Shown here piece after piece: positions 30,882-33,180 of a DNA stretch of 64,000 nucleotides. Made by a program: the position numbers and the translations under genes. The notes under the pieces were generated by a model, which made no database searches, was not told the DNA's origin, and saw only the letters and a list, made by a program, of their open reading frames with translations. Origin of the DNA: an uncultured Verrucomicrobiales bacterium (GTDB lineage Bacteria; Verrucomicrobiota; Verrucomicrobiia; Verrucomicrobiales; Akkermansiaceae); NCBI GenBank assembly GCA_937969495.1, contig CALBVY010000015.1:1-64000 (forward strand), given 5' to 3'. How positions within the stretch are numbered: the first letter of the stretch is position 1; each line of letters starts with the position of its first letter.

Positions 30882-31460
30882 ATGAAAAAGACTATTCCAT
30901 TTGCTACAATCGCCATGCTGGGGCTCTCCTTGAGCCCTATTCATGCCGATGATGCTACTACCACAAAAGCTGCTACTGAAGCAGCCGCAACCGTTGAGAA
31001 AATCCCTGTCTACATCGTTGTAGTCAGCGGCAAGGGCTGAGGCGTCGGTGCAAAAGCCAGTTCGGCGATTAAAGCACAAGACGGCGTTAAAAACGTTCTC
31101 CTCTCCGGTTACCGCGCCACCGTTCTCATGAACGACGGCAAGGAACTCGATGAAGCAAAAATTCAAAAAGCCATCACAGGTAAAGGCCTAAAGATGACTT
31201 CCTTCGCGAAGTCTGAAGCCATTGTTCCTGATATGGTCTACCAGCTCAAAGTATCTGGTGGTGGATGATCAATCGATGCTGACAAGGCCCGTGTGGCCTT
31301 AGAAAAAATGGATGGTATCACTGCTGCTTATGTTGCTAAAGACGTTGATATTCACTTAGCAAAAGGTGCTTCATTTAACGAAGAGGAGATCGCAGAGATC
31401 CTTAAGAAGTATAAAATGACAGTGCGTAGCTCTAAGAAACTCGATACTCTACCATTCTAA
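30882..31460 (+). CDS. Candidate secreted selenoprotein with two HMA-like domains and two in-frame TGA (Sec) codons
   Basis: Reading from ATG 30882 to TAA 31458-31460 gives 192 codons, interrupted only by TGA at 31038-31040 (residue 53) and 31266-31268 (residue 129). A signal peptide covers 1-22 (ends PIHA). Two similar domains follow: about 41-110 with VVVSGKGU53GVGAK, and about 114-185 with LKVSGGGU129SIDADK. Each continues like the beta-alpha-beta-beta-alpha-beta HMA fold (AI..QDGVKNV; AL.KMDGITAA). In HMA proteins this loop reads GMTCxxC, so each TGA sits at the first Cys, while the second Cys is Gly or Asp. The protein has no Cys. SECIS-like hairpins follow both TGAs and a strong terminator follows the gene. 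Periplasmic metal or redox chemistry is inferred. Confidence 0.85.
31043..31083 (+). promoter_or_regulatory. SECIS-like hairpin after first TGA
   Basis: Downstream of TGA 31038-31040, CGTC (31043-31046) pairs with GACG (31080-31083), GTGC (31048-31051) with GCAC (31074-31077), and GCC (31056-31058) with GGC (31064-31066). The apical loop is AGTTC, with G second. The loop begins 19 nt after the TGA, inside the 16-37 nt range of the bacterial SECIS model. The upper stem is short (3 G-C pairs). Confidence 0.6.
31284..31300 (+). promoter_or_regulatory. SECIS-like hairpin after second TGA
   Basis: AAGGCC (31284-31289) and GGCCTT (31295-31300) form a perfect 6-bp stem with loop CGTGT, G second. 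The loop begins 22 nt after TGA 31266-31268. Stem length, loop size, G position and spacing all satisfy the bacterial SECIS consensus and closely match the first element. Confidence 0.7.
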
Positions 31461-31507
31461 TTACATCATACACCGCGCTTAATTCTACGCGATAGACATT
31501 CTGAACC

Positions 31508-31551
31508 CCCGCTCGCCGTCCACTTGTGATAGCGAGCGGGTTTTATTTTTT
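31508..31551 (+). terminator. Intrinsic terminator of the selenoprotein candidate gene
   Basis: CCCGCTCGC (31508-31516) pairs perfectly with GCGAGCGGG (31532-31540) and is followed by TTTTATTTTTT. It lies 48 bp after the TAA on the plus strand, showing that the candidate gene is its own transcription unit. The T-run overlaps the 3' end of the convergent gene. Confidence 0.9.
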
Positions 31552-33180
31552 ATGGACAATGAGTAAAAACGGTGAAGTCTCACGGTGACCATTTCGCACA
31601 TAATGAGACACGTTAAACATCTCACCGGGTAATTGCTCCACCCATGCACTAACTTCCGCTGCTTCACGCTCACCACCTATGTGACCAGGGTAACACATCA
31701 CACTCAACACTCCCCCAGACTTCAAGCATGCGGTAGCCTGCTGCAGGGCATCTAAGGTAGTCTCTAGCTGTGTGATAATTGCCTTATCCGCACCCGGAAG
31801 ATACCCTAAATTAAACATCACACAGGCTACCTCCCCCATCAGCTCCTCGCAAATGATCTGCTTCATCTCAGCGTGATTTTTCTGATGTAGTTCCACCGTA
31901 TTCATCAGCACACCTTCATCGGTAAGGCGCTGGCTCGCTGAGGCTATCGCTTGTTCTTGAATATCAAATCCAATCACTCGACCACTATCCCCTACCAACG
32001 ACGCTAGAAAAAGAGTGTCGTGACCATTCCCCACAGTGGCATCAATCACCACATCTCCCACACATACTACCTCCGCAACCAAGTGATGCGCAGTTTTAAG
32101 CAGATTCCCCGTCGAAATAAGACCACATGGGGGTGATAGAGGAAACGGAATATTCAGCTCAGGATCAAGGTCAACTCCACCAGTCAGAAATTCTGCAAAA
32201 TGTTTTGCTACAGCAGGTGCCATTAATGCGCCTTTGGATCCCAGACCGTTAAAAAATCCCAACTTTCCATTGTTAGGATGCAAGCCAATGACAGGCCGGC
32301 TACTCCTAACAATAGGACGCACCCCAGCTTCTTGCGCCACTACTTCCACCGGTAGATCGCACCAAGACGCTAATTTACTTAACACCTCAGCACGCCCTTC
32401 AGGTGTCACTTCAGAATTCAGATTTTCCCAATCATAAGTCGCACCCACCTTCCATGTACCATCACCACGAGCAGCTAACCAACCATCAGCATGATAACGC
32501 TCGTGCTCAGGCAGCCCTTTGATTTTCACCGTAAGGATTTCTCCCTTAGCGCAGCGGTGTGGTATGTCACCAAACCAGCCCCTACCACGAAGTCCATAAG
32601 CGCCCTGACACAGAATAATCTTACCCGCCGTGATACCTTTCCAGATCACACCATGTGAGAGAAACTCCGCATCCTGTTCGTGAAAATCATCTTCTCGATA
32701 GGCATTCTGACTCATCAATCTTTGCTGAACTGAGGTGAGAAATTTTTGACTATCTAACCAAGCCCCACCAAACATCTGTAGACCTCCATACTCAGACTTC
32801 AGCCCCCCTTTATCAAAGGACTTTTCCGCTCCCCACTTACCATGCTGAGCCGCCTTCCCCCGCCATTTTTCTCGCTCCCGCTTTGAACGAAACAAGCGAA
32901 CCACATCACATGCATGGTAAAACTTCTCTCCTGTCTCCTGCTCCAGCGATTGATAGAATGTTTCCGCAACTGGCAGATATTCATCCTGTCGCCATGCTGG
33001 ATTAAGCCCCTTACCAGTTAGAGGAGTCACTAAACCCGCCGCGACACGCGATGAGGAACCTTGATCTTGCCGATCCACCACCAGCACCTTCTCCCCTCGT
33101 TGAAGAAGAGCCAAAGCTAACGTACTACCAGCTATTCCCTGCCCAATGATGATCGAGTCATATTCCATGCGCGCTGACAC
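31543..33180 (-). CDS. Fused FAD-dependent oxidoreductase and MnmM-type methyltransferase (likely tRNA U34 modification)
   Basis: The 545-aa product has two parts. Residues 5-345 are a DAO-family flavoprotein with dinucleotide motif IIGQGIAGSTLALAL (11-25), acidic VVDR, SSSRVAAGLVTPLTG (42-56), and a late GLGSKGALMAP FAD-contact segment. They resemble the MnmC oxidase. Residues 356-545 are a SAM methyltransferase with VIDATVGNGHDTLFLA (378-393) and FNLGYLPGADK (456-466), hallmarks of the YtqB/MnmM family that methylates nm5(s2)U34. In E. coli MnmC an unrelated methyltransferase precedes the oxidase. Here a different one follows it. The likely role is cmnm5U to nm5U to mnm5U conversion; this is inference from the fusion. 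Confidence 0.8.
   Translation of the reverse strand: MSARMEYDSIIIGQGIAGSTLALALLQRGEKVLVVDRQDQGSSSRVAAGLVTPLTGKGLNPAWRQDEYLPVAETFYQSLEQETGEKFYHACDVVRLFRSKREREKWRGKAAQHGKWGAEKSFDKGGLKSEYGGLQMFGGAWLDSQKFLTSVQQRLMSQNAYREDDFHEQDAEFLSHGVIWKGITAGKIILCQGAYGLRGRGWFGDIPHRCAKGEILTVKIKGLPEHERYHADGWLAARGDGTWKVGATYDWENLNSEVTPEGRAEVLSKLASWCDLPVEVVAQEAGVRPIVRSSRPVIGLHPNNGKLGFFNGLGSKGALMAPAVAKHFAEFLTGGVDLDPELNIPFPLSPPCGLISTGNLLKTAHHLVAEVVCVGDVVIDATVGNGHDTLFLASLVGDSGRVIGFDIQEQAIASASQRLTDEGVLMNTVELHQKNHAEMKQIICEELMGEVACVMFNLGYLPGADKAIITQLETTLDALQQATACLKSGGVLSVMCYPGHIGGEREAAEVSAWVEQLPGEMFNVSHYVRNGHRETSPFLLIVHKK

What the first reader, a model, noticed from the sequence alone, without database searches (positions are those of the whole stretch)
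31038..31300. Two SECIS-like hairpins with matched geometry downstream of the two TGAs
After each TGA a hairpin carries a 5-nt apical loop (AGTTC and CGTGT) with G at loop position 2. The loops start 19 and 22 nt after the TGA, inside the accepted 16-37 nt range for bacterial SECIS. The second has a perfect 6-bp stem. The first has a short GC upper stem plus two further 4-bp helices (GTGC/GCAC and CGTC/GACG). Finding two such elements within one gene, each in coding sequence of unrelated primary sequence, supports SelB-directed recoding at both codons.
Basis: partly seen in the sequence, partly recalled or inferred. Interest (0 to 1): 0.8.

Follow-up and report, generated by a model that had tools for sequence, protein, structure and literature searches.

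The report
Double-selenocysteine envelope protein with two SECIS hairpins
A marine bacterium related to Akkermansia carries a gene whose two internal "stop" codons are almost certainly read as selenocysteine, each directed by its own RNA hairpin, giving a previously uncatalogued exported, metal-chaperone-shaped protein with two selenium atoms; this arrangement is kept in all 50 relatives found.

Summary
The two TGAs (31038, 31266) and the two loops (19th and 22nd nt after each TGA, G at loop position 2) are as described. In this sequence alone the case is weak: the first hairpin has only 3 bp and neither 60-nt fold beats shuffles clearly. Relatives decide it. A 192-aa gene (30882-31460) has homologues in 50 of 386 genomes of its order, every one with exactly two in-frame TGAs at these sites and none with Cys there. 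A 7-bp stem with an NG[G/U]NN loop follows both TGAs in the family: 90% and 94% of pairs form, far above shuffles; 28 Watson-Crick double changes per hairpin on the tree; 0 of 2,000 synonymous recodings reach it. The genome has selA, selB, selD and tRNA-Sec. The protein is an exported tandem of two HMA (copper-chaperone) folds with Sec replacing the first Cys of each CxxC and no second Cys. No catalogued selenoprotein family matches; the nearest, NF041115 (UxxU), fails its cut-off. Recoding is near certain; soft-metal binding is an inference (about 50%).

The parts
30882..31460 (+). Gene for a 192-aa double-selenocysteine protein: ATG at 30882, TGA codons at residues 53 and 129, TAA stop at 31458-31460
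   Evidence: homologues with exactly 2 in-frame TGAs in 50 genomes
30882..30950 (+). Predicted signal peptide (MKKTIPFATIAMLGLSLSPIHA); several homologues have a lipobox instead (e.g. FLASC, GLASC)
   Evidence: read from sequence; low pLDDT for residues 1-35
31038..31040 (+). First Sec codon (residue 53), start of the beta1-alpha1 loop of HMA-like domain 1
31052..31070 (+). SECIS 1: family stem 31052-31058/31064-31070, loop AGTTC 31059-31063; only the 3 loop-closing GCC/GGC pairs are uninterrupted in this species
31266..31268 (+). Second Sec codon (residue 129), same position in HMA-like domain 2
31283..31301 (+). SECIS 2: family stem 31283-31289/31295-31301 (6 bp AAGGCC/GGCCTT here), loop CGTGT 31290-31294
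30999..31223 (+). HMA-like domain 1 (residues 40-114, beta-alpha-beta-beta-alpha-beta)
   Evidence: AlphaFold2 model and PDB matches
31233..31439 (+). HMA-like domain 2 (residues 118-186)
31505..31548 (+). Probable intrinsic terminator after the gene (inverted repeat CCCGCTCGC..GCGAGCGGG followed by T run)
   Evidence: read from sequence; missed by the loop-limited scan

Best explanation
The gene at 30882-31460 encodes an exported selenoprotein with two selenocysteines. At each UGA the ribosome is met by SelB-GTP-Sec-tRNA(Sec) docked on a hairpin whose 5-nt NG[G/U]NN loop lies about 20 nt downstream, so Sec53 and Sec129 are inserted in one pass (step inferred from family conservation, covariation and the presence of the machinery; not shown biochemically). 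The mature protein is two consecutive HMA (ferredoxin-like, copper-chaperone type) domains. In each, Sec sits where the first Cys of the CxxC metal site normally is, and the second Cys is gone. Most likely (about 50%) it is a periplasmic or envelope-anchored metallochaperone or sequestering protein in which the two selenolates hold a soft metal ion such as Cu(I), Ag(I) or Hg(II), one from each domain. A selenol or diselenide redox role is the main alternative (about 35%). The confidence given below is for the double-Sec recoding, not for the metal role.
For: 50/386 genomes of the order have the gene, all with exactly 2 TGAs; 20 loci from GTDB contigs, partly the same genomes, also have 2 TGAs each, including the isolates Roseibacillus persicicus, Rubritalea profundi and Rubritalea marina. 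Covariation: SECIS1 90.2% cells paired, score 0.400 vs 0.225 shuffled; SECIS2 93.8%, 0.723 vs 0.279; at least 28 Watson-Crick double changes per hairpin on a protein tree built without those residues. Selection at RNA level: synonymous recoding (2,000 trials) never reaches the observed pairing, >=6-bp stems (39 and 45 of 50) or loop rule (50 and 50 of 50); loop codons are AGT or CGT/CGG/GGT only, against all six Ser and Arg codons elsewhere in the genes. Machinery in own genome: selB, tRNA-Sec, selA, selD that itself has an in-frame TGA in CAG-U. Across 386 genomes 44/50 with the gene have a tRNA-Sec-length match versus 49/336 without, Fisher p 2e-25; 5 of the 6 exceptions have a selB over cut-off. 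UGA is a true stop elsewhere: 10 of 42 ORF frames of >=200 aa in the window, and two homologues end in TGA with no strict hairpin after it. Fold: pLDDT 84, two HMA domains, HMA matches Z 9-10, profile match to tandem HMA of CopA 7.6e-6 with Sec129 on the first Cys.
Against: No direct proof of selenium. No Cys-containing orthologue was found, which is the usual supporting pair for a selenoprotein. SECIS 1 of this species is below the 4-bp model minimum. For the function: the second metal ligand of CxxC is missing, no metal-resistance gene is conserved next door, and the geometry between the two Sec residues was not measured.
Confidence: 0.93

Rival explanations
1. Same double selenoprotein, but the Sec residues do redox chemistry (selenol peroxidase/reductase, or an intramolecular Sec53-Sec129 diselenide) and not metal binding.
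For: Most bacterial selenoproteins are oxidoreductases (PMC13188914). Domain 2 has UxxT in 42/50, the mature protein is Cys-free in 47/50, and the second CxxC ligand is lost.
Against: The fold is HMA, not thioredoxin. The same genome has a Cys version of this architecture, a tandem GMTCxxC HMA protein. The nearest catalogued families (NF041115, MerP, CopZ, MerT/CopZ) are named metal-binding.
Confidence: 0.35
2. UGA is read through as another amino acid (suppressor tRNA or code reassignment), and the hairpins are unrelated structures.
For: Only that selenium itself is not shown.
Against: UGA terminates other genes here and even some homologues. The complete Sec machinery is present and the loops follow the bacterial SECIS rule at 100 of 100 sites.
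Confidence: 0.02
3. The UGAs are stops: a pseudogene, or a short peptide with programmed termination.
For: In the standard code the frame ends at residue 52.
Against: Codons after both UGAs are conserved as protein across families (27-65% identity), with two stems under selection. A pseudogene would not keep exactly two TGAs in 50 genomes.
Confidence: 0.01
4. The hairpins covary because they regulate the mRNA (pausing, attenuation) and not because SelB reads them.
Against: They sit at a fixed distance from two UGAs, carry the NG[G/U] loop at 100/100 sites, and the gene tracks tRNA-Sec.
Confidence: 0.02

Closest known systems
NF041115 UxxU_metal_bind (metal-binding (seleno)protein, listed with 2 Sec, UxxU)
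   Same: HMA-type small metal-binding domain with Sec in the CxxC position; matches 20 of 21 family members, best E 4.5e-9
   Different: Window protein scores 14.4 bits against a cut-off of 95; the family has two HMA domains with one Sec each and no UxxU pair
MerP, CopZ and CopA N-terminal HMA domains (PF00403; PDB 1p6t/2rml, 1osd, 2qif)
   Same: Fold, tandem order as in CopA, active residue before helix 1
   Different: Sec instead of the first Cys; second Cys absent; exported; window sequence itself gives no Pfam hit
MerT/CopZ fusion-like heavy metal transport selenoprotein NF045683 and GOS 'Mercuric transport protein MerP' selenoprotein (PMC2398784)
   Same: Sec in HMA-like mercury/copper proteins
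   Different: Only 1 of 21 members touches NF045683, E 0.06; the GOS MerP entry is 2 sequences in one sample, sequence not available here
Tandem-HMA Cys protein of the same genome (G000:C45, L093:1318-1908)
   Same: Secreted, two HMA domains, similar length; hhalign E 3.7e-5
   Different: Normal GMTCGSC and GMTCTSC motifs plus extra cysteines; no TGA

Membership tests
Bacterial selenoprotein (SelB/SECIS type) | In-frame UGA conserved in homologues, with coding conservation on both sides | tested here: met
   50/50 with 2 TGAs
[quoted passage not shown]
   Loop rule at 100/100 sites; stem >=4 bp in 49/50 (UGA1) and 49/50 (UGA2); the window's UGA1 is the 3-bp exception
Bacterial selenoprotein (SelB/SECIS type) | Genome encodes SelA, SelB, SelD and tRNA-Sec | tested here: met
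Bacterial selenoprotein (SelB/SECIS type) | Cys-containing orthologues at the Sec sites (usual, not obligatory) | tested here: inconclusive
   None in the order, the phylum sample or the GTDB contig scan, but the scans have limited reach; a Cys tandem-HMA relative of the same architecture exists in the own genome
Bacterial selenoprotein (SelB/SECIS type) | Selenium shown in the protein | not testable with these tools
   needs mass spectrometry or 75Se labelling
HMA domain (PF00403) | Beta-alpha-beta-beta-alpha-beta fold | tested here: met
   Pfam HMA hit in 9 of 21 members, best 1.2e-7
HMA domain (PF00403) | CxxC metal site | tested here: not met
   U-x-x-A/G/S in domain 1, U-x-x-T/K/D in domain 2
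NF041115 UxxU metal-binding selenoprotein | Score over curated cut-off 95 bits | tested here: not met
   window protein 14.4 bits
NF041115 UxxU metal-binding selenoprotein | UxxU motif | tested here: not met
   no second Sec at +3 in any of 50
MerP (TIGR02052) | MerP model match and mer operon context | tested here: not met
   11 of 21 members match weakly (best 2.1e-5), the window protein does not; no mer-type gene among the shared neighbours

The most novel reading that the evidence does not exclude
A new selenoprotein family in which each of two HMA domains binds a soft metal through a single selenolate, so that one metal is clamped Se-M-Se between domains: a dithiol metallochaperone site re-invented as a split diselenolate site, never found with Cys, and possibly a main reason why marine Akkermansiaceae keep selenocysteine.
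Probability: 0.3. Interest if true: 0.8.

Novelty: new variant of a known kind. Interest (0 to 1): 0.62.

Why it matters
It adds an uncatalogued, Sec-only, two-Sec family to the bacterial selenoproteome, with one of the clearer covariation cases for bacterial SECIS inside coding sequence (two elements per gene, 100 sites). It is likely misannotated as fragments wherever UGA is read as stop. It exists in culturable Rubritalea and Roseibacillus, so double Sec insertion and the reason for selenium in an HMA metal site can be tested directly.

Tried and rejected
Extra helices of SECIS 1 (GTGC/GCAC, CGTC/GACG): pair no better than shuffles. Viral contigs: no relative. Code reassignment: rejected by TGA-terminated genes. 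Operon context: shared neighbours only within the genus (FAD oxidoreductase/methyltransferase, TatD-like hydrolase and others), none metal- or selenium-related, so no functional hint. Promoter scan gave only one chance-level site. FdhA as the reason for Sec use: no match over cut-off in the own genome. Literature: no description of this family found; the 2026 catalogue of 119 families lists none that fits (PMC13188914).

Full report
Observation. The two in-frame TGAs at 31038 and 31266 and the two 5-nt loops with G in second position are in the sequence as stated. The second stem is a perfect 6 bp; the first is 3 bp. On the window alone this is suggestive only: fold z-scores are -1.5 and -0.6, and 13.7% of all TGA triplets in the window have a strict hairpin of at least 3 bp downstream, 1.3% one of at least 6 bp.

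Family. Read with TGA as Sec, the frame 30882-31460 gives a 192-aa protein with a signal peptide. A search of 386 genomes of the order found it in 50, each with exactly two in-frame TGAs; in the 50 aligned coding sequences the two TGAs are about 76 codons apart throughout. A scan of GTDB contigs with the Sec columns masked, so that Cys forms could also appear, returned 20 loci, all double-TGA (several are the same genomes), including Roseibacillus persicicus, Rubritalea profundi and Rubritalea marina. A phylum-wide sample of 387 genomes gave hits only in the same family. No Cys orthologue was found. Identity to the window protein falls to about 27%, so neutral persistence of two stops is not credible.

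RNA. Aligning 45 nt from each UGA needs no gaps. A 7-bp stem with a 5-nt loop follows both. SECIS 1: 90.2% of cells pair, covariation 0.400 against 0.225 in shuffles. SECIS 2: 93.8%, 0.723 against 0.279. Sliding the partner by 1-3 columns destroys both. RNAalifold finds the same stems unaided. On a protein tree built without the Sec and hairpin residues, Watson-Crick to Watson-Crick changes number at least 28 for each hairpin, so shared ancestry does not explain it. Recoding each sequence synonymously 2,000 times never reached the observed pairing, the number of >=6-bp stems or the loop rule. The stem is kept through amino-acid changes too: for SECIS 2, K-A-R-V-A-L in AAGGCC CGTGT GGCCTT against E-R-L-R-A-D-L in GAGATTG CGTGC CGATCTC. 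Loop position 2 is G and position 3 G or U in 100 of 100 sites, the published bacterial SECIS rule (PMC13188914). The window species has the weakest SECIS 1 of all 50; whether its extra local pairing compensates is open.

Machinery. The window's genome (96% complete) has selB, tRNA-Sec, selA and selD, and the selD reading frame contains its own TGA in CAG-U-ASK, a known selenoprotein. Of 50 genomes with the gene, 44 show a tRNA-Sec-length match, against 49 of 336 without (p 2e-25, not corrected for phylogeny; the list is truncated, so counts are lower bounds). Five of the six exceptions have selB over cut-off; the sixth is an 88% complete MAG. UGA is an ordinary stop in this genome and ends the coding sequence in two homologues, L054 and L065, with no strict hairpin behind it.

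Protein. AlphaFold2 (21 sequences, pLDDT 84) gives two beta-alpha-beta-beta-alpha-beta domains, with Sec53 and Sec129 just before helix 1 of each. VIA-align places both on HMA domains with Z 9-10; a profile search finds the tandem HMA of CopA at 7.6e-6 with Sec129 on the first Cys of CxxC. Pfam HMA is reached by 9 of 21 members, best 1.2e-7. The second Cys is replaced by A, G or S in domain 1 and mostly T in domain 2, and 47 of 50 have no Cys between ten residues before the first Sec and sixty after the second. Several homologues have lipoprotein signals. The own genome also has a conventional Cys version of the architecture, a secreted protein with GMTCGSC and GMTCTSC.

Interpretation. Shown by sequence: conservation, covariation, machinery, fold prediction. 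Inferred: SelB-dependent Sec insertion at both codons (about 0.95), export to periplasm or envelope (about 0.9), soft-metal handling (about 0.5) against redox (about 0.35). The mechanism of insertion is the known one. The protein family is not in the 2026 catalogue of 119 families (PMC13188914) nor over any NCBIfam cut-off for the window protein, where the nearest model is NF041115 (UxxU). By membership it is a bacterial selenoprotein (selenium itself not shown) and an HMA-fold protein, but not an NF041115 or MerP member.

Limits. The genome search samples species; the library of papers is open-access only; supplementary selenoprotein sequence sets could not be opened, so an unnamed earlier record (for example the GOS 'Unknown' family, PMC2398784) cannot be excluded.

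Noticed in passing
G000:C22:25238-26164 (L090): selD of the same genome has an in-frame TGA in the motif CAG-U-ASK, i.e. a Sec-containing selenophosphate synthetase, with a possible 6-bp, GUU-loop hairpin about 31 nt downstream.
   Followed up: partly
G000:C45, L093:1318-1908: Secreted tandem HMA protein with ordinary GMTCxxC motifs, followed by a small cysteine-rich lipoprotein: a Cys counterpart of the selenoprotein in the same genome.
   Followed up: partly
L054 and L065, C-terminal ends of the homologues: These homologues end in TGA as a genuine stop while two upstream TGAs in the same mRNA are conserved as Sec; no strict SECIS-type hairpin follows the final TGA.
   Followed up: yes
window 31543-33180 (-): FAD-dependent oxidoreductase fused to a methyltransferase (545 aa) in the window genome and L067; in relatives (L069, L070, L072, L074, L075, L077) the two parts are separate neighbouring genes.
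   Followed up: no
L079:6783-7805 (-): In an uncultured Roseibacillus the gene next to the homologue is a predicted permease with an ECAVVP motif and a His/Cys-rich loop, possibly a metal exporter; seen in one genome only.
   Followed up: no
window 31038-31070: The window species has the most degraded SECIS 1 of 50 homologues (A-G mismatch at pair 4) yet a stable alternative local fold; whether insertion at UGA1 is less efficient there is open.
   Followed up: partly
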